This document shows positions 2 to 7,281 of a stretch of 7,293 nt of DNA, piece by piece. A model generated the notes under the pieces. That model did no database searches. It worked only from the letters and a program-made list of their open reading frames with translations, and had not been told where the DNA came from. Origin of the DNA: SAR202 cluster bacterium (GTDB lineage Bacteria > Chloroflexota > Dehalococcoidia > UBA3495). Numbering within the stretch: position 1 is the first letter of the stretch; each line of letters begins with the position of its first letter. The stretch lies in assembly GCA_002401285.1 (NCBI GenBank), contig NVSQ01000028.1, forward strand, positions 7,456 to 14,748, given 5' to 3'. The translations under genes and the position numbers were made by a program.

Positions 2-745
2 CTGGGCGCCGGGTCCCGGCCCCATGGCGTGATCGTGGGACCTGACGGAGCGCCTTGGGTCACCGACAGCGGTCTGAACGCCATCGTGCGCGTCGATCCG
101 GAAAGTCTAAGAGTGGACGTTTTCCCCTTACCACCGGACCGCCCCAACGTGAACTTAAACACTCCCACGTTTGATAACGACGGAGTACTTTGGTTCACCG
201 GACAGGGTGGTGTCTACGGACGGTTGGACCCAGCCACGGGTGAGATGGAGGTTTTCGACGCGCCGCGTGGCCGGGGTCCCTACGGAATCGCGGCCAGTCC
301 CAACGGCGACGTTTATTACGCCTCTTTGGCTGGGAGTTACGTGGGCCGCATCGATCCCAAAACAGGCGAAGCAACCGTCCTAGACCCGCCAACCCCGAAT
401 CAGGGCGCTAGGCGCGTATGGCCCGATTCCCAAGGCAGGATATGGGTAAGCGAGTGGAACGCCGGCAAAGTGGCGGTATATGACCCATCCGAGGAAACAT
501 GGCGCGAGTGGAAGCTTCCCGGTTCGGCGCCACGGGCGTATGCGGTTTATGTCGATGAGCTGGACATGGTGTGGCTAAGCGACTTTGGCGCTAACTCGGT
601 CGTCCGGTTTGACCCAGAGAGCGAGGAGTTCGAGGTGTTCGACCTGCCCAGTAACCCCAGCAACGTCAGGCAGATCCTCGGCCGGGACGGCGAAGTTTGG
701 CTGCCAGAGTCGGCGGCTGACCAACTCGTAAGGATCCGTTACTAG
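2..745 (+). CDS. Vgb-like (streptogramin lyase family) beta-propeller protein, 5' end outside the window
   Basis: The frame is open to the left edge, so the gene starts upstream. The GTG at 29 lies inside a propeller strand (RPHGVIV.PDG) and is not a real start. About six repeats of roughly 40 residues are visible, each with a W(V/F)T/S..-N-x-V-x-R-x-DP core: VTDSGLNAIVRVDP, WFTGQGGVYGRLDP, YYASLAGSYVGRIDP, WVSEWNAGKVAVYDP, WLSDFGANSVVRFDP and WLPESAADQLVRIRY. This is the pattern of the COG4257/Vgb seven-bladed propeller, so about one blade and any signal peptide are missing. True virginiamycin B lyases use His and Glu residues in late blades to open the streptogramin lactone. Here the matching GPHG positions read GPYG, GARR, PRAY and NVRQ, so antibiotic lyase activity is not supported. 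A binding or other lyase role is open. The gene stops at TAG 743-745, and I see no clear terminator after it. Confidence 0.8.
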   Translation: MGAGSRPHGVIVGPDGAPWVTDSGLNAIVRVDPESLRVDVFPLPPDRPNVNLNTPTFDNDGVLWFTGQGGVYGRLDPATGEMEVFDAPRGRGPYGIAASPNGDVYYASLAGSYVGRIDPKTGEATVLDPPTPNQGARRVWPDSQGRIWVSEWNAGKVAVYDPSEETWREWKLPGSAPRAYAVYVDELDMVWLSDFGANSVVRFDPESEEFEVFDLPSNPSNVRQILGRDGEVWLPESAADQLVRIRY

Positions 746-936: not shown

Positions 937-1598
937 GTGGTCGTTAGCCGAGCAAAGACGATGAAGATCGCGAGCACTCTAGGCTGGATCGCGATAGTGC
1001 TTGCCGTGCTCCTGATGCTCTTTTCCGGGGCGAATCGCCTGGGGTCATTGACCCAGGATGCGGCAACGGCTGACGCTCTGGGCGTTCGCTATATCGAGCA
1101 CCCGTGGGTCTCGCTCTTCCACATTGTTCCGGGGGTGCTGTTTCTCACGTTTGCTCCCCTGCAGTTCGTCGCCCGGATTCGGCGGCGGAGAATCAGCATT
1201 CACCGTGGCTCGGGGCGGGTGCTCGCCACCTTGGCCGCGATCAGCGCCGTGCTCGCGCTCGTCGTCAACTTCCTCTTCCTGCCTTCGGCGGCATCAGCAC
1301 ACAGTCAGCAGTAATCTTCGTGAGCGTACTCCTTCTCTTTTCACTTTCTATGGCGATTCGTCACATCATTAGGAAAGAGGTGCGCCAACATCGTGAGTGG
1401 ATGATCCGAACGTTCGCCGCGGCCATGAGTGTGGCCACCCAGCGGGTCTTCCTTATTCTACTTACGTCGCTGACAGGCCTTAGCTTGGAGGAGGTATTTG
1501 GCGCCGCCTTTTGGCTGGGTATCGGCGTCAATCTGGTAGTAGCGGAGGTGTGGATCAACCACACGCGCGCGTCAAGCCGGTCTGCGGAAAGAGCTTAG
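937..1598 (+). pseudogene. DUF2306-type multi-pass membrane protein, interrupted by a one-base frameshift
   Basis: The first frame (937-1314) gives 125 residues with three hydrophobic segments (about 11-29, 57-78 and 95-115) and the loop RRRRISIHRGSGRVL. It then ends in an unrelated tail, SAASAHSQQ. A second frame picks up at about 1281 with AFGGISTQSAVIF and runs to 1598. It adds three more membrane segments, the loop RQHREWMIR, and the ending LGIGVNLVVAEVWI. Joined at 1280/1281 with one added base, the gene has 221 codons including the stop. HR.(S/L)GR, FGGIS, HR.WMIR and the N-LLVAE-WI ending are typical of the DUF2306 family, whose function is unknown. CTGCC at 1279-1283 was probably CTGGCC, giving LAFGGIS. 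No slippery heptamer is present, so programmed frameshifting is unlikely. GTG 937 is chosen because GGGAGG lies six bases upstream at 925-930. A sequencing error is a real alternative to a pseudogene. Confidence 0.75.
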
Positions 1599-1734: not shown

Positions 1735-2067
1735 ATGGTTACTCGTATATACAACGGTGAGGATGGTCAGGCCCACTTTGAGGACCTCAACGTGCCAGCG
1801 GGAGACCTAGAGACAATCTCCCTCACGCCCGGAGCCAACATGACGTTCCGCAACTCCCCGGATGGGAGCTTCAGCGATTGGCACAACGGTCCTCGGCTTC
1901 AGTACGTGATCGTCCTTTCCGGACAGATGGAAATAGGCATCGGAGACGGCACCAAACGGATGTTTAACCCCGGCGACATTCTGCAAGTCGAAGACCTGAC
2001 GGGCCAGGGCCACACCACTCGTTCGGTGGGCAACCGGATCACCGCCAGTGTGCCCTTAGCCGGATGA
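1735..2067 (+). CDS. small single-domain cupin protein
   Basis: The product is 110 residues, the usual size of a one-domain cupin beta-barrel. Motif 1 is DWHNGPRLQYVIVLSGQMEIGIGDG (about 48-72) and motif 2 is FNPGDILQVEDLTGQGHTTR (77-96). H50, Q56 and H93 are the likely metal-facing residues. The classical HxH pair and Glu of motif 1 are reduced to H50 plus Q56, as I recall for the cupin group with WHN.P..QYV. It may bind a metal or small ligand, but the reaction cannot be stated. No signal peptide is seen, so it should be cytoplasmic. GGAGG at 1726-1730 lies four bases before ATG 1735 and fixes the start. It converges with the alpha/beta hydrolase with only 39 bases between them, and the two share no promoter. 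Confidence 0.85.
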   Translation: MVTRIYNGEDGQAHFEDLNVPAGDLETISLTPGANMTFRNSPDGSFSDWHNGPRLQYVIVLSGQMEIGIGDGTKRMFNPGDILQVEDLTGQGHTTRSVGNRITASVPLAG

Positions 2068-2106: not shown

Positions 2107-3033
2107 TTATTCGTTTTCAGACGCGACGTTCCCTAGAAATCCTCTGATCTCACTTAGAATCAGGTCAGGATACTCCATCGGAATAAAGTGGGTACCGCAG
2201 CCCATCGCTTTCACCCGTGACCCAGCGACCGTTTTCAGAAAATTCTGCACACCAACGTCTTCGGGTTTCTGGCCGGTGGGGTAATCTCCCAGCAGCAGCA
2301 GGTACTGTCCAGTGAGCCTTTCTATGTACACTGCATCGTTCACGCCATCACGCTGCCCGTAGAACGCCGCCTCCACTTCGGGATTGCATTTCAACTCAGC
2401 CCGTCCATCCGGCAATAAACGAGTGCCGCCTTCTATGAAATCGGCAAACACTTCTTCGGTCCACCTCTTGAATACCGGGCGGTTCCGGTAGGCCTCGTAC
2501 ATCGCCTCCCGGCTTTCCCAGATGGACCGTTTCAGTCTCGCCCGCCTCGCCCGTTCTTGCAGGTCCTGGGACGGCGCCGACGCTGGGGGAGGACCCACAC
2601 GGGACTCTATCAGCACGGACCGACCGATGATGCCGGGCTGCAGGGAGTCGGCAATCATAGTGGCCATCCCCCCCAAAGAGTGTCCCACCGTGTCAACACC
2701 TTCGAAGCCCATCAGCCGGATAACTTCGGCCAGGTCTTCCCCCATCTGGTGAAAAGTTAGGTTCTGATCCGTAGATTCCGTATCGCCGTGGCCGCGCTGA
2801 TCGAAACACATGACGTGGAAGTCTGCGCTCAGGGACCTGGCCGCCCGGTTCCAGGTGGAAGCACAGAGACCGACGGCATGCAGCAACAACAAAGGCGGCG
2901 CGGTGGGGTTGCCCCAATCTAGATAGTGGTGGTTGATCCCCTGTGCCTTAACGAATTGACTTGTTGGCTGCAACAATTCCTCCCCCATTAATTCGGTCGT
3001 TCGGCGGACTATTCTAACGGCAGGGGGCAGCAT
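2107..3033 (-). CDS. alpha/beta hydrolase fold protein
   Basis: The product is 308 residues with an alpha/beta hydrolase fold. The oxyanion-hole strand is LLLLHAVG (48-55), the DQRGHGDT turn is at 78-85, and the nucleophile elbow GHSLGG (117-122) places catalytic Ser at S119. C-terminal GTHFIPME supplies the catalytic His (H282). The acid is probably D250 in LLLLGDYP. The region of about 130-230 between elbow and acid is a helical lid. The layout resembles esterases, lactonases and C-C hydrolases of the Abhydrolase_1 group; the substrate cannot be read. The start at 3033 is preferred over Met16 (2988) because GGGAGG (3046-3041) lies seven bases upstream of it and no SD precedes Met16. There is no clear signal peptide. 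It is read away from the haem dioxygenase gene and toward the cupin. It could act on a lipid product of the neighbouring oxygenases, but there is no direct evidence. Confidence 0.88.
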   Translation of the reverse strand: MLPPAVRIVRRTTELMGEELLQPTSQFVKAQGINHHYLDWGNPTAPPLLLLHAVGLCASTWNRAARSLSADFHVMCFDQRGHGDTESTDQNLTFHQMGEDLAEVIRLMGFEGVDTVGHSLGGMATMIADSLQPGIIGRSVLIESRVGPPPASAPSQDLQERARRARLKRSIWESREAMYEAYRNRPVFKRWTEEVFADFIEGGTRLLPDGRAELKCNPEVEAAFYGQRDGVNDAVYIERLTGQYLLLLGDYPTGQKPEDVGVQNFLKTVAGSRVKAMGCGTHFIPMEYPDLILSEIRGFLGNVASENE

Positions 3034-3374: not shown

Positions 3375-3388
3375 ATGATTGATCATGG
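3373..3388. repeat. perfect 16-base inverted repeat next to the dioxygenase start
   Basis: CCATGAT-TG-ATCATGG has seven-base perfect arms and a two-base centre. It covers the first ATG at 3375. A small hairpin, GGGTT-CTC-AACCC (3387-3399), overlaps its right edge. A seven-base perfect dyad next to a possible transcription start suits a repressor site. Confidence 0.45.
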
Positions 3389-4775
3389 GTTCTCAACCCC
3401 AAAAAGCTCGCAGCTAACACCTAGATCGATCGGCGAGTATACCGCTGGCGATCACCGAGGTTGGATCGAGATGGATAATGGAGAACAAGCAGTCCGGGCA
3501 GAAGCCCAAGAGTTACTCGAACAGCGGAAATATCGAGACGCGCTGGATCTGCTGAAAAATCGCCTCCCTCAGGAGACTGACGGAGAAGGACATGCGTTGC
3601 TGGGCCTCGCCCACTATCACCTGGAAGAATACGCATCGGCTGTTGAGCAATACGCTGTGGCCCTGCAACTTGATGCTGGTAATCAAGAGTGGCAGGAGAT
3701 GCTGGATGCTGCGAGAGCGAATACCGTCGCTGAGATTCAAGTACCGGTTCCCGATGTTTACTTCTTCGATCGCGACAAGTTGTTGGCAGAGCCTATCGTG
3801 CCAGACGGAGCATTGCCGCCACGGCCGCTAATAGTTCGCGGCCCCGGACCGTTAAAGCGATTAAAGGTGATCCTCGAAACCTTGATAGGCGCCATATTAG
3901 GCTTCATTACGGATGTCCTGATCCAACTTGCCGGAAAGGTGATTGGATATCGCGGAAAAGTGTGGACCGATTGGTACAACAGGTGGTATCTGATCGGGAC
4001 ATTTACGTTGGCGTATCTGCGAGTCGTGCTCACCAAAAACAACCTCAAGGATACCTACCCCAAAGGTACCCTTATCGGGTTCCAAACACCCGGTCAATCG
4101 CCTCCTGAGGGTGTCACACACTTTCGCACGGCAGACGGTAGTTGGAACAACTTGGCCGACCCAAAGGAAGGGGCCGCGGGCACCCGTTTCACCCGAAATG
4201 TAGAGAATGACGCGATCCATCCGGAGACCGGGAATATCCTTATGTCCCCGAATCCCCGGGAAGTAAGCTTGCAGTTTTTAACGCGCCAAGGGGAGATGAA
4301 AACAATTCCCTTTCTCAACCTCTGGGCAGCCGCATGGATCAATTTCCAAAACCATGACTGGATCGATCACGGCCAGACTCTGACCGATGAATACCATGAG
4401 ATCCCGCTACCGGCGGACGACCCTGCCCGGGAGAGATTTCGGCAAACCAAGATGCTACTCCCAAAAAGTCAGCCGGATCCGACACGACGACCCGGGCAAG
4501 AGGAAACTCCGATCTCGTTCATCAACGAGGTGACACATTGGTGGGATGCCTCGCAGATCTACGGCAGCGATCAGGAGACAGTTGACCGGCTCCGTAGCCA
4601 TGACGATGGCAAGTTAAGAATCAACGCCGATGGTTCTCTACCGGTCGGTCAAAACGGAGTTGAGGAGACCGGATTCACTCGAAATTGGTGGATCGGGCTG
4701 ACGTTGCTTCACACGTTGTTTGCCAGAGAGCACAACGCCATATGTGACAAATTAAAACAAACACATCCAGATTGA
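3375..4775 (+). CDS. TPR-haem dioxygenase/peroxidase (PIOX/alpha-dioxygenase-like), N-terminal part up to an in-frame TGA
   Basis: This is the first part of an 822-position gene (3375-5843) interrupted at codon 467. Residues about 33-115 form two TPR-like helical repeats (LLEQRKYRDALDLL; ALLGLAHYHLEEYASAVEQY). A hydrophobic, possibly membrane-associating stretch follows at about 162-192. The animal haem peroxidase domain then begins: FRTADGSWNNLADP, AGTRFTRNV, SPNPREVS, and PFLNLWAAAWINFQNHDWIDHG with the likely distal haem His at H327. It ends REHNAICDKLKQTHPD. ATG 3375 has no SD and sits inside a palindrome. ATG 3471 (Met33) begins right before the TPR and has GAGG ten bases upstream, so 3471 is the likelier start. 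Alone, this piece lacks the proximal His and catalytic Tyr and should not be active. Relatives oxygenate fatty acids with O2. Confidence 0.8.
   Translation: MIDHGFSTPKSSQLTPRSIGEYTAGDHRGWIEMDNGEQAVRAEAQELLEQRKYRDALDLLKNRLPQETDGEGHALLGLAHYHLEEYASAVEQYAVALQLDAGNQEWQEMLDAARANTVAEIQVPVPDVYFFDRDKLLAEPIVPDGALPPRPLIVRGPGPLKRLKVILETLIGAILGFITDVLIQLAGKVIGYRGKVWTDWYNRWYLIGTFTLAYLRVVLTKNNLKDTYPKGTLIGFQTPGQSPPEGVTHFRTADGSWNNLADPKEGAAGTRFTRNVENDAIHPETGNILMSPNPREVSLQFLTRQGEMKTIPFLNLWAAAWINFQNHDWIDHGQTLTDEYHEIPLPADDPARERFRQTKMLLPKSQPDPTRRPGQEETPISFINEVTHWWDASQIYGSDQETVDRLRSHDDGKLRINADGSLPVGQNGVEETGFTRNWWIGLTLLHTLFAREHNAICDKLKQTHPD
4773..4775 (+). other. in-frame TGA at an expected Trp codon of the haem dioxygenase
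   Basis: The frame reads THPD-TGA-DDNRLFNVARLINAALIAKIH. In this family, as I know it, the segment is (Y/H)P.W.(D)(E)RLF..ARL, so TGA stands for TGG, a single G-to-A change. No frame shift is involved. The next stop in the frame is at 5841-5843. Several other genes here appear to end in TGA, and Trp is otherwise written TGG, so the code looks standard. Confidence 0.85.
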
Positions 4776-4796
4776 GATGATAATCGCCTCTTCAAT

Positions 4797-5843
4797 GTGG
4801 CCCGCCTTATCAACGCGGCGCTGATAGCCAAGATTCACTCTATCGAGTGGACACCCGCGATTTTGCCCAATCGTGCCCTACACTCGGGCTTGCAAGCCAA
4901 TTGGTTTGGTCTCTTGACCAATATCTTTAAGACCGGCCGTCAAAGGAAAACGTTGGCTGAATTCAACGTGCGAAATCCTGAGATGGGCGGACTAGTCGGG
5001 AACCGGCTTAATAAGAATGGTCACCCTTTTGGCTTCGCCGAGGAATTCGTGGAAGTCTATCGTCTGCATTCGTTATTGCCCGAGACGATCGATATTCGGC
5101 GGATCGCCAATCAAGAACAGATCGAGAAAATACCATTTGTCGAAACGCGCCAGGCAGGTTCGCCCAAGTTGACCGAAAAAGTCGGTCTGCTCGACCTTTC
5201 CTACTCCTTTGGCCGACAGCTTCCGGGGAAACTGGTGTTGAACAATTTTCCGAAGTTCATGCAAGAGATGAGTGTTCCAGGTAACCCTTTATTCGACTTG
5301 GGCGCCGTGGACATCCTAAGGGCGCGCGAGCGGGGCGTGCCTAGATACAACAAATTCAGGCGCCAGTTAACTCTCAATCCGATTCGCGCCTTCGAAGACC
5401 TCACCGGCGACGTGAAGGTTGTGGAGCGACTCAAAGAAGTGTACGAAGACAAGCCCGAAGACATAGAAAAGTTGGACCTGATGATCGGCACTCTTGCAGA
5501 AGAACATCGGCCAAAGGGGTATGGATTCGGCGAAACCATGTTCCAGATCTTTATTCTCAACGCCAGCCGAAGACTTCAGGCGGACCGCTTCTATACCACT
5601 AACTACAACGAGGAAACATATTCCAAAGAAGGGCTTAAGTGGATCGACGATTCCAGTTTCAAAACCGTTTTGTTGCGCCACTATCCAGAGCTTGGCGAAA
5701 CCGGGTTAGAGAACGTCAAAAACGCCTTTGAACCTTGGGATACCGGAGAACGACTGGATAAGAAACGCCACCCTATCCGTGAATATGACCGGGAGTTGAA
5801 GCCCGATCCGATGCTCGGTGACTCGTATCGGCAATCACGGTGA
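4797..5843 (+). CDS. haem dioxygenase/peroxidase (PIOX/alpha-dioxygenase-like), C-terminal part after the in-frame TGA
   Basis: This is the same reading frame as the preceding gene part. GTG 4797 is only the first possible internal start and has no good SD, so independent translation is doubtful; in the whole protein it is Val475. The piece carries KIHSIEWTPAIL (H488 of the whole; the matching His in plant alpha-dioxygenases helps bind the substrate carboxylate). EEFVEVYRLHSLLP contains the Y-x-x-H pair: catalytic Tyr562 and proximal haem His565. Next come DILRARERGVPRYNKFRR, the hallmark of animal-type peroxidases, and LNASRRLQADRFYT, whose Arg residues contact haem or substrate in alpha-dioxygenases. 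Spacing from distal His327 to H488 (161) and to Y562 (235) is close to plant alpha-dioxygenase as I recall it (about 155 and 223). The downstream sequence shows no further decay, so the TGA is recent, read through, or an error. A P450 gene follows. Confidence 0.8.
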   Translation: MARLINAALIAKIHSIEWTPAILPNRALHSGLQANWFGLLTNIFKTGRQRKTLAEFNVRNPEMGGLVGNRLNKNGHPFGFAEEFVEVYRLHSLLPETIDIRRIANQEQIEKIPFVETRQAGSPKLTEKVGLLDLSYSFGRQLPGKLVLNNFPKFMQEMSVPGNPLFDLGAVDILRARERGVPRYNKFRRQLTLNPIRAFEDLTGDVKVVERLKEVYEDKPEDIEKLDLMIGTLAEEHRPKGYGFGETMFQIFILNASRRLQADRFYTTNYNEETYSKEGLKWIDDSSFKTVLLRHYPELGETGLENVKNAFEPWDTGERLDKKRHPIREYDRELKPDPMLGDSYRQSR

Positions 5844-5873
5844 CCACTTTATGACCGGGATGATTCTGGCTTC

Positions 5874-5918
5874 GTAAGTGCGGGCCGCTTACTTAGCGCG
5901 TTGTCACACCAGGCCCGC
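5874..5918 (+). promoter_or_regulatory. two overlapping, mutually exclusive hairpins between dioxygenase and P450 genes
   Basis: Hairpin A pairs GTAAGTG (5874-5880) with CGCTTAC (5886-5892), seven pairs including one G-U, with loop CGGGC. Hairpin B pairs GCGGGCC (5880-5886) with GGCCCGC (5912-5918), seven pairs with a 25-base loop. They share bases, so only one can form at a time. Neither is followed by a T-run, so neither looks like a standard terminator. They could mark an mRNA processing or stability site in a dioxygenase-P450 transcript, or be chance. Confidence 0.3.
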
Positions 5919-5982
5919 CGATAGAAGCTGGTGGTCTACGAATCGGGACCCACCTTAACCGGGCAAAGGAGTAAAGCAACCG

Positions 5983-7281
5983 ATGGCCAACGAAACCGGC
6001 AAAACCTTACCCTCGACCGGGTTGATGGATCTTATTCGACTGATCTGTGGCCTCCTCCGCGCTTTGATGCCCAATCGCTACTTCTTGAATCCCGGTTTGG
6101 TCCTAAGTGATTGGATCAGGGATCTAGCCCGGCGCCGCTCGACCGAGGGCATCATCCTCAACTTTGGATTCAGAAGGTTTTTGCTGGTAACGGGAAGAGA
6201 CCTGTCACGACACATCTTGAATCAAAGTCCAAGCACCAACACTTATGCGGCAGGACCGGGCAAAGTAGCGGCCGTGTCTTTCCTGGCGGAGCAATCGCTC
6301 ACTCTTAGCCATGACGAGAAATGGGACAAGCTGCGACCGTTAAATGAGCAAACACTGTCAACCGGTGGCAGCCCTGATCTCCAACAGGCTGCACTGTTCC
6401 AAGTCCAGGTGGCATTTGCCCAACCTGTATCCAGCATTGATGACATTCGAGACCGTATGGGCAGGGTCATGCTGGGGGTTGTATTTGGCGGTGCTCCGCC
6501 ACAACTGGCTCAAGACATACAAGTCTTGTTTGGCTATGTCCAATCCCTGCCGAGAAGAAAATTGTTAGGATGGACCCAAAGAGGCCGCCGCGAACGGTTT
6601 TATGGGTCGATTCGGCAGTCGTGGAACGAGGCGCAAGGAACGAGTCTGCTTGCCAGAGCGCACACCTTTTCTCGAGGGGGACATTTCGACGAAGATCAAC
6701 TGCTGCAGCAGATCCCCCACTGGATGTTCACGTTTACCGGGTCGGGCACCGATCTGCTATCGAGGACATTGGCCATGTTGGGGTCAAGGCCGGAGGTTGC
6801 CGAGCAGGTGCGACAGGAGATTAACGCTGCTGGTCCCCTGGACCAAGCGATCTCCATCAGCCGCCTAAACTTCGTGGAAGCATGCCTATTGGAGACATGC
6901 CGCCTGTTCCCGCCGGTTACCCGTACTTCCCACGTAGCTCCCCAAGGAGATACGTTCGACGGCGTCTCAATACCGGCCGGCTTGGAGATATTGCACTACT
7001 TCCTGATCAGCCTCCGCGACACTTCGGTGGACCCAAGCGCTAACTACTTTGAACCGGACAAATGGCTCGACCCGGGAAACGATAGGCGCTCGGTGTACCC
7101 TAATATCTTTCTAAGCGGCGCGCGAGCTTGCCCCGGTGAAAGTCTGATTCTTTTCGTCTGTAAAGCCGCGATTATATTTCTCTACGGAGTGAAAAATGAG
7201 ATGCTAAGCATCCGTGCGCTCACAACGGACCCTCTGTCTTTCCCATTCCCGAAAGGGACACCTCGTTTTCGATTATCTTGA
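5983..7281 (+). CDS. cytochrome P450 with a non-canonical I-helix
   Basis: The product is 432 residues, complete for a soluble bacterial P450. The Cys loop FLSGARACPG matches FxxGxRxCxG, with C383 as haem ligand. The K-helix ExxR is ETCR (304-307), followed by LFPPVTRTS. FEPDKWLDP takes the PERF position. The I-helix is WMFTFTGSGTDLLSRTL (247 on). Against the usual (A/G)Gx(D/E)T(T/S) it reads T-G-S-G-T-D (252-257), so the acidic residue is Gly255 and the Thr (T256) is kept. Loss of that acid is known in P450s that act on preformed hydroperoxides or act as isomerases, rather than on O2 with NAD(P)H electrons. AGGAG at 5967-5971 lies 11 bases before ATG 5983. No ferredoxin or reductase gene is in the window. 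The gene follows the haem dioxygenase by 139 bases on the same strand and may be cotranscribed. A fatty-acid hydroperoxide is the inferred substrate; a normal monooxygenase remains possible. Confidence 0.9.
   Translation: MANETGKTLPSTGLMDLIRLICGLLRALMPNRYFLNPGLVLSDWIRDLARRRSTEGIILNFGFRRFLLVTGRDLSRHILNQSPSTNTYAAGPGKVAAVSFLAEQSLTLSHDEKWDKLRPLNEQTLSTGGSPDLQQAALFQVQVAFAQPVSSIDDIRDRMGRVMLGVVFGGAPPQLAQDIQVLFGYVQSLPRRKLLGWTQRGRRERFYGSIRQSWNEAQGTSLLARAHTFSRGGHFDEDQLLQQIPHWMFTFTGSGTDLLSRTLAMLGSRPEVAEQVRQEINAAGPLDQAISISRLNFVEACLLETCRLFPPVTRTSHVAPQGDTFDGVSIPAGLEILHYFLISLRDTSVDPSANYFEPDKWLDPGNDRRSVYPNIFLSGARACPGESLILFVCKAAIIFLYGVKNEMLSIRALTTDPLSFPFPKGTPRFRLS

What the first reader, a model, noticed from the sequence alone, without database searches (positions are those of the whole stretch)
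3375..7281. Bacterial haem dioxygenase next to a P450: a split version of the fungal Ppo/linoleate diol synthase arrangement
The right-hand block codes, in order and on one strand, for a PIOX/alpha-dioxygenase-type haem oxygenase and a cytochrome P450. In fungal Ppo and linoleate diol synthases the same two enzyme types are fused: the N-terminal haem domain makes a fatty-acid hydroperoxide and the C-terminal P450 domain isomerises it. Gene order here matches domain order there. This suggests a two-gene bacterial oxylipin-type pathway. Function and substrate are inference.
Basis: partly seen in the sequence, partly recalled or inferred. Interest (0 to 1): 0.75.

Follow-up and report, generated by a model that had tools for sequence, protein, structure and literature searches.

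The report
Bacterial alpha-dioxygenase with its partner P450
Bacteria of several unrelated groups keep a gene for an enzyme that adds oxygen next to the acid end of fatty acids beside a gene for one particular, unnamed cytochrome P450, which points to a two-step pathway in an unusual combination; in the organism read here the first gene is interrupted by a stop signal.

Summary
In detail: a haem fatty-acid dioxygenase gene and a P450 gene lie in order on one strand, 139 bases apart. Two corrections matter. The dioxygenase is an alpha-dioxygenase (plant PIOX family, C2 oxygenation), not the Ppo/linoleate diol synthase type: 26 of 26 aligned copies keep the residues that hold the fatty-acid carboxylate in rice alpha-dioxygenase. 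And the gene here is broken by an in-frame TGA at 4773-4775, present also in the window's assembly and in other database copies. The linkage is real: relatives of this P450 adjoin an alpha-dioxygenase-type gene in 16 of 16 testable loci from about five phyla, in all three gene orders, so 'matching domain order' means little. The P450 passed no named-family cut-off; 0 of 64 aligned copies carry the O2-activating I-helix motif that 8 of 9 readable other P450s show, as expected of a hydroperoxide-using P450. Some clusters add catalase-like, DyP-like, RoxA-like or OYE-like genes. Best reading: a bacterial alpha-oxidation oxylipin cassette in which the P450 converts the 2-hydroperoxide. Linkage and family membership are shown; the reaction is inferred.

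The parts
3375..4775 (+). N-terminal part of the alpha-dioxygenase gene (longest frame; likely start ATG 3471): weak TPR-like N-terminus, then haem peroxidase fold with the distal haem His (codon 4353-4355)
   Evidence: (PF03098 positions 1-247; TPR_16 E 3.5e-4, below its cut-off)
4773..4775 (+). in-frame TGA that interrupts the alpha-dioxygenase gene; relatives have Trp at this residue in 105 of 106 sequences where the motif was found (44 of the 150 examined were not matched by the expression)
   Evidence: also in G000:C168 ('1 TGA') and at the end of P0241 and P0243
4776..5843 (+). C-terminal part of the alpha-dioxygenase gene in the same frame: His 4836-4838 (rice H311), Thr 4851-4853 (T316), radical Tyr 5058-5060 (Y379), proximal haem His 5067-5069 (H382), Arg 5571-5573 (R559)
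   Evidence: (PF03098 positions 249-522)
5965..5971 (+). AAAGGAG, likely ribosome-binding site of the P450 gene
5983..7281 (+). intact cytochrome P450 gene, 432 aa, of an unnamed family; partner of alpha-dioxygenase
6715..6759 (+). I-helix signature PHWMFTFTGSGTDLL: the acid position of the canonical (A/G)Gx(D/E)TT motif is Gly
6892..6903 (+). ExxR motif (ETCR) of the P450
7108..7137 (+). Cys pocket FLSGARACPG with the haem-thiolate Cys

Best explanation
The block is a two-gene member of a bacterial alpha-oxidation cassette. The first gene codes for an alpha-dioxygenase: a haem-generated Tyr radical takes a hydrogen from C2 of a free fatty acid held by its carboxylate and O2 adds there, giving a 2-hydroperoxy fatty acid. 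The second codes for a dedicated, probably redox-partner-free P450 that takes this hydroperoxide (or its immediate breakdown product) and rearranges, dehydrates or cleaves it before it decays by itself to a one-carbon-shorter aldehyde. Shown here: family of both proteins, catalytic and substrate residues of the dioxygenase, strict linkage, loss of the O2-activation motif in the P450. Inferred: that the hydroperoxide is the P450's substrate, and the product. In the organism of the window the dioxygenase gene is interrupted by a TGA shared by the near-identical copies seen, so the pathway is probably off or very weak there, while the P450 gene is intact.
For: Nearest structures are rice and Arabidopsis alpha-DOX. 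H157, H311, W315, T316, F375, Y379, H382, F552, A556 and R559 of rice are kept in 26 of 26 sequences aligned to it (window, 12 loci L033-L044, G159, 12 database proteins). Lactoperoxidase and peroxinectin have Thr for H311, Leu for T316 and Leu or Thr for R559 (read by eye). Linkage 16 of 16 testable loci; 15 of 15 without the remote G942 P450 (25% identical, its Cys-pocket and ExxR sequences altered). 18 of 71 distinct P450 contig lengths of 5 kb or more recur exactly among dioxygenase contigs, against 0-1 after shifting (a lower bound, since only the 120 best rows of each list were visible). The two trees correlate: r 0.83, 0 of 5000 permutations, 28 pairs; for the window plus 11 named loci r 0.49, 3 of 5000. 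Canonical I-helix motif 0 of 64; acid position Gly 114 and Ala 3 of 117 readable of 120; other P450s canonical in 8 of 9 readable, of 28 loci tried. Dioxygenases of the same phylum without this P450 carry catalase-like, DyP-like or companion genes in 6 of 9 loci. CYP peroxygenases lack the acid-alcohol pair (PMC10988616, start of abstract in the listing).
Against: No activity is shown for any member. A missing acid residue also occurs in some ordinary P450s (recalled), and an invariant Ser (S254) could serve as the alcohol under another alignment of the I-helix. The P450 could act on the aldehyde or on another lipid. The dioxygenase is interrupted in the window's species, so the pair cannot be presumed to work there. 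The tie is one-sided: 9 of 11 genomes with the dioxygenase in the window's phylum lack this P450. Five of the 16 loci are Moorena, and in the tree comparison L033 and P0064/P0144 are near-identical, three Moorena pairs likewise, and 16 of 28 pairs rest on equal contig lengths, so the correlation is inflated. Positions near the site that do vary: W262 is Ser in 4 of 26, M325 and T376 vary.
Confidence: 0.58

Rival explanations
1. True split Ppo/linoleate diol synthase: the dioxygenase makes an 8- or 10-hydroperoxide of an unsaturated fatty acid and the P450 isomerises it to a diol, epoxy alcohol or allene oxide.
For: Same two enzyme superfamilies; a fatty-acid desaturase gene lies about 0.8 kb downstream of the P450 in the window's contig; OYE-like genes, the family of the plant jasmonate-pathway reductase (recalled), in 5 of 16 loci.
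Against: Alpha-DOX carboxylate and alpha-carbon residues kept in 26 of 26 copies; Tyr motif and I-helix differ from the fungal motifs in PMC13049297; gene order not conserved.
Confidence: 0.12
2. Ordinary O2- and reductase-dependent P450 that works downstream of alpha-oxidation on the shortened aldehyde or 2-hydroxy acid (for example oxidising, deformylating or hydroxylating it).
For: Alpha-DOX products decay to aldehydes or become 2-hydroxy acids (PMC9305512, passages); ordinary Cys pocket and ExxR motif; fold closest to ordinary monooxygenases.
Against: Canonical acid-alcohol motif absent in 64 of 64 copies. Redox-partner genes beside the P450 were not searched for, so their presence or absence says nothing here.
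Confidence: 0.22
3. Detoxification or defence module: the P450 and the other haem enzymes mainly destroy lipid hydroperoxides or release reactive aldehydes against competitors or grazers.
For: Some clusters gather several haem peroxidase-like genes; in the two-gene oleate-diol operon of P. aeruginosa the hydroperoxide former expressed alone was lethal or toxic, and the second gene is seen as control (PMC4496055, passages).
Against: A generic detoxifier need not be tied to one dioxygenase family as strictly as seen.
Confidence: 0.08

Closest known systems
Plant and cyanobacterial fatty acid alpha-dioxygenase (PIOX; rice 4KVJ; CalDOX, LepDOX of PMC8720084, passages seen)
   Same: Haem ligands, Tyr radical and H311/T316/R559 set; E 8e-114 to rice
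   Different: Window-type copies have about 200 further N-terminal residues with TPR similarity; linked to a P450, a word that does not occur in PMC8720084
Fungal DOX-CYP fusions (Ppo, LDS, AOS, EAS; Oliw 2026, PMC13049297, sections 6, 24 and 28 and passages read)
   Same: A COX-superfamily haem dioxygenase paired with a P450 without the usual O2-activation motif; the 9R-AOS I-helix GVGT resembles GSGT here (resemblance only)
   Different: Separate genes, alpha-DOX branch, YRLH/YRMH instead of YxW/YxF, no NQ in the I-helix
Nostoc punctiforme 10S-DOX with a catalase-related hydroperoxide lyase in a separate gene (Brash 2014, as cited in PMC13049297; original not held)
   Same: Two-gene bacterial haem dioxygenase plus hydroperoxide-converting haem enzyme; catalase-like genes also occur in some of these clusters
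   Different: Linoleate 10S-DOX, and the second enzyme is catalase-related, not a P450
Pseudomonas aeruginosa oleate-diol synthase operon PA2077/PA2078 (PMC4496055, passages seen)
   Same: Two-gene bacterial hydroperoxide former plus diol synthase; RoxA-like genes also sit in 6 of 16 P450-dioxygenase loci
   Different: Both enzymes are RoxA-related dihaem cytochrome c peroxidase-type proteins; no alpha-DOX or P450

Membership tests
Fatty acid alpha-dioxygenase (PIOX) | Distal and proximal haem His and catalytic Tyr (rice H157, H382, Y379) | tested here: met
   kept in 26 of 26 sequences aligned to rice (window read with X at the stop)
Fatty acid alpha-dioxygenase (PIOX) | Carboxylate-binding His311 and Arg559 and alpha-carbon-positioning Thr316 | tested here: met
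   kept in 26 of 26; replaced in lactoperoxidase and peroxinectin (by eye); roles from PMC8720084 passages
Fatty acid alpha-dioxygenase (PIOX) | 2-hydroperoxidation of fatty acids | not testable with these tools
   needs enzyme assay
Ppo / linoleate diol synthase | DOX domain with YxW or YxF at the catalytic Tyr | tested here: not met
   YRLH or YRMH in the 26 aligned copies against Table 2 of PMC13049297
Ppo / linoleate diol synthase | P450 domain with NQxQ-type I-helix (SRS4) | tested here: not met
   TGSGTD in 44 of 64 and variants in the other 20, no NQ in that stretch in any, against Table 3 of PMC13049297
Ppo / linoleate diol synthase | Covalent fusion DOX then P450 | tested here: not met
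   separate genes in all 16 loci, in three orientations
CYP74 | Insertion in the Cys loop and altered haem-binding sequence (recalled) | tested here: not met
   F(L/F)xGxRxCPG without insertion in 63 of 64; definition recalled, not fetched
CYP152 peroxygenase | Arg-Pro in the I-helix that binds the fatty-acid carboxylate (recalled) | tested here: not met
   no Arg-Pro in that stretch of the 22 sequences printed; definition recalled
Named bacterial P450 families of NCBIfam | score above the curated cut-off | tested here: not met
   best 56 bits against a cut-off of 525 for the 4 P450s given

The most novel reading that the evidence does not exclude
An unnamed P450 family is a dedicated 2-hydroperoxy fatty acid isomerase or lyase. 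Together with alpha-dioxygenase, and in many hosts with catalase-like, DyP-like, RoxA-like, OYE-like and small beta-barrel companions, it forms a bacterial alpha-oxylipin pathway present in about five phyla. The TGA shared by the copies of the window's species would then mark loss, or leaky read-through control, of the hydroperoxide-making step.
Probability: 0.4. Interest if true: 0.75.

Novelty: new variant of a known kind. Interest (0 to 1): 0.6.

Why it matters
Pairing a COX-like dioxygenase with a hydroperoxide-converting P450 is known from fungi, and COX with thromboxane or prostacyclin synthase from animals (PMC13049297); the bacterial counterparts that I saw in the papers use catalase-related or cytochrome c-type partners. 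A strictly linked alpha-dioxygenase and P450 in several bacterial phyla would give alpha-dioxygenases a dedicated second enzyme, where the product is otherwise described as decarboxylating spontaneously or becoming a 2-hydroxy acid (PMC9305512). It may also add a P450 family that uses hydroperoxides without redox partners. It is directly testable with genes from named strains (Moorena bouillonii PNG, Thioalkalivibrio denitrificans ALJD).

Tried and rejected
Chance adjacency: rejected, 16 of 16 testable loci although this P450 is rare: 2 of 301 genomes of the window's phylum, 1 of 292 of Moorena's phylum, 4 of 346 of L042's phylum (one of them the remote G942), 4 of 20 of Moorena's family. In some searches at most 5 candidates a genome were scored, so these are lower bounds. 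Not counted: L045 (ends inside the P450, probably the other part of L037's gene), G008 (P450 piece at a contig end, L052), and G357, G358, G359, G362, G877 and G1013, which repeat L034, L036, L038, L042, L040 and L035. G942 is a remote relative (25% identical; Cys pocket and ExxR altered, no canonical I-helix motif); without it the count is 15 of 15.

The dioxygenase is not tied to the P450 in return: in the window's phylum 11 of 301 genomes have it at E <= 1e-50 and only 2 of those have the P450. The other nine are 41-45% identical to P0121; their catalytic residues were not checked. An earlier count said 7 of 9 of these loci carry companion genes; the recount is 6 of 9.

Recoding of TGA: rejected as a genome-wide code, because TGA also ends the cupin, dioxygenase and P450 genes. 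Assembly error: unlikely, since the window and G000:C168 differ at 2 of 7293 bases and share the TGA, and P0241 (cluster of 51 member sequences) and P0243 (17) end at the same residue (only the representatives were seen). No intact copy closer than 85% over the whole protein was among the 120 rows listed of 3399. Decay after the stop: not seen; window-unique against P0121-unique changes 14 to 13 in the second half and 8 to 11 in the first (outgroups P0122/P0123), 19 to 21 and 20 to 21 (P0122 alone), 10 to 5 and 7 to 3 with a wider outgroup. This fits a young inactivation or residual read-through and cannot separate them.

Papers: ten searches, several of which showed only the top of their listings (for example 12 of 62, 12 of 164, 20 of 88, 10 of 241). 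No title or abstract start in them describes this alpha-dioxygenase and P450 linkage; passages were seen in five papers only (PMC13049297, PMC8720084, PMC9305512, PMC11719350, PMC4496055). The library is open-access only, so this is weak evidence of absence. No tree with Ppo or CYP74 members was built, because their sequences were not at hand; published or recalled motifs were used instead.
Full report
WHAT IS THERE. The window is G000:C168:22977-30269 of an unnamed 3.99 Mb draft genome, 78.6% complete; its phylum is not told, and the names on some of the nearest hits (Dehalococcoidia bacterium) suggest Chloroflexota (inference). The window differs from that contig at 2 of 7293 bases. On the + strand lie an An_peroxidase-type gene, 3375-5843, and a P450 gene, 5983-7281. 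The first is interrupted by an in-frame TGA at 4773-4775.

THE HAEM ENZYME IS AN ALPHA-DIOXYGENASE. Its closest listed intact relative P0121 (85% identical) hits rice and Arabidopsis alpha-dioxygenase at E 8e-114 and 8e-104, far ahead of lactoperoxidase, 2e-30. I aligned the window, the dioxygenases of 12 P450-bearing loci (L033-L044), G159 and 12 database proteins (of the 150 listed) with the rice chain. All 26 keep H157, H311, W315, T316, F375, Y379, H382, F552, A556 and R559; W262 is Ser in four, and M325 and T376 vary. According to PMC8720084 (passages) H311 and R559 bind the fatty-acid carboxylate, T316 positions the alpha carbon and Y379 forms the radical. In lactoperoxidase and peroxinectin the H311, T316 and R559 positions hold other residues (read by eye from the printed alignments). 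The fungal DOX domains of Ppo and LDS have YxW or YxF at the catalytic Tyr (PMC13049297 Table 2); here it is YRLH or YRMH. So the first product to expect is a 2-hydroperoxy fatty acid.

THE P450. Four members given to NCBIfam match no family near its cut-off, and the best PDB hits by sequence are generic (CYP3A4, E 7e-9). An AlphaFold2 model (pLDDT 91.5) is an ordinary P450 fold without a specific nearest family. Its I-helix reads PHWMFTFTGSGTD. The canonical (A/G)Gx(D/E)(T/S)(T/S) motif occurs in 0 of 64 aligned members (TGSGTD in 44, variants in 20). In the 120 listed homologues the acid position is Gly in 114 and Ala in 3, with 3 unreadable. As a control, 28 loci with other P450s from this genome and its relatives were tried; 9 gave a readable frame and 8 of these have the motif. 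This is what hydroperoxide-using P450s look like (PMC10988616, start of abstract; PMC13049297), but it is not proof.

LINKAGE. A scan of species genomes with the P450 alignment found 13 loci; 12 have an alpha-dioxygenase-type gene directly beside the P450 and the thirteenth (L045) ends inside the P450. Adding the window, G159, and G942 and G1012 gives 16 of 16 testable loci; G942's P450 is a remote relative with altered signature sequences, so 15 of 15 without it. By record titles they come from cyanobacteria (Moorena and others), Gemmatimonadetes, Thioalkalivibrio, Dehalococcoidia and Pontiellaceae; that these are five phyla is partly recalled. Five of the 16 are Moorena. Orders: dioxygenase then P450 in 6, P450 then dioxygenase in 7, divergent in 3. 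In the protein lists, 18 of 71 distinct P450 contig lengths of 5 kb or more equal a dioxygenase contig length, against 0-1 after shifting. The two trees correlate (r 0.83 over 28 pairs, 0 of 5000 permutations; r 0.49 over the window and 11 named loci, 3 of 5000). Common descent and near-identical pairs contribute to this, and 16 pairs rest on equal contig lengths.

THE WIDER CASSETTE. Several loci hold further genes of kinds met in oxylipin metabolism: RoxA-like proteins in L034, L039, L040, L042, L044 and G1012; OYE-like flavoproteins in L034, L035, L036, L041 and G1012; a small protein 'sm' in L036, L038, L039, L040, L042 and L043; catalase-like, DyP-like and 'x440' genes in L036, L038 and L043. 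The window, G159, L033 and L037 show none of these in full in the stretch held, though L033 has a RoxA-like fragment at its end and L045, L037's probable other part, has RoxA-like and OYE-like genes. G942 was searched with the same queries and shows none. Of nine related dioxygenase loci without this P450 in the window's phylum, six carry one or more of the sm, catalase-like, DyP-like and x440 genes; three do not, two of them on contigs of about 6 and 10 kb. The P450 thus seems to be one of several haem partners that bacteria attach to an alpha-dioxygenase. 'sm' is fused to the P450 in P0113 and to a RoxA-like protein in L039. The window's contig has instead a fatty-acid desaturase gene about 0.8 kb downstream of the P450, with a kinase-like gene between.

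THE INTERRUPTED GENE. P0241 (463 aa, cluster of 51 sequences) and P0243 (302 aa, 17) end at the same residue as the window's first half, so the stop is not peculiar to one assembly. Near-identical P450s are common (P0001-P0006, 97-100%), yet no intact dioxygenase closer than 85% over its whole length is among the 120 rows listed. The second half shows no clear excess of change. I read this as a young loss or a leaky read-through; the first is likelier.

KNOWN OR NEW. Two-gene bacterial hydroperoxide pathways are known with other partners: Nostoc 10S-DOX with a catalase-related lyase (cited in PMC13049297; original not held) and the P. aeruginosa oleate-diol operon (PMC4496055, passages). Ten paper searches listed none with alpha-dioxygenase plus P450, within an open-access library and mostly seen only as listings. 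I rate it a new variant of a known kind.

Noticed in passing
P0134 (1055 aa; 667 kb contig): An alpha-dioxygenase of the window's type runs into the N-terminal third of a different P450 (Pfam positions 1-171) and then ends in unrelated-looking sequence: a natural but possibly frameshifted or truncated fusion.
   Followed up: partly
P0212 (1106 aa): An alpha-dioxygenase of the window's type fused to a C-terminal catalase-like domain (PF00199, E 6.8e-7), the partner type also found as a separate neighbour in other loci.
   Followed up: partly
L036:3019-3447, L038:5920-6372, L043:11336-11788 and the N-terminus of L039:11238-13286: A small conserved protein (no Pfam match for the L036 copy), fused to the P450 in P0113 and to a RoxA-like protein in L039; the modest model has one significant structural match, Tcur_1030.
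   Followed up: partly
L036:3520-4839 and relatives in L038, L043, L068, L071, L072: A protein of about 440 aa (no Pfam match for the L036 copy), conserved next to a DyP-like gene in alpha-dioxygenase clusters.
   Followed up: no
L051:7841-9136 (G159): The P450 copy beside an intact dioxygenase seems itself disrupted (in-frame TGA and an apparent shifted stretch); a real defect or an assembly error.
   Followed up: no
L083:8534-9868 (-) (G942): A remote P450-like protein beside an alpha-dioxygenase-type gene, with IPHWLF kept but the Cys pocket reading NGPQACAG and DSQR in place of ExxR: perhaps a more derived partner.
   Followed up: partly
window 2107-3033 (-), 1735-2067 (+), 937-1314 (+), 2-745 (+): Alpha/beta hydrolase, small cupin, DUF2306 membrane protein and a virginiamycin B lyase-like protein upstream; the hydrolase and cupin, the two tested, had no match in the other P450 loci searched.
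   Followed up: partly
L038, L039, L040 and L042 dioxygenases: Unusually long alpha-dioxygenases (936-1002 aa) matched by Pfam in three stretches where scanned (L038, L039); Ser replaces the otherwise conserved W262.
   Followed up: no
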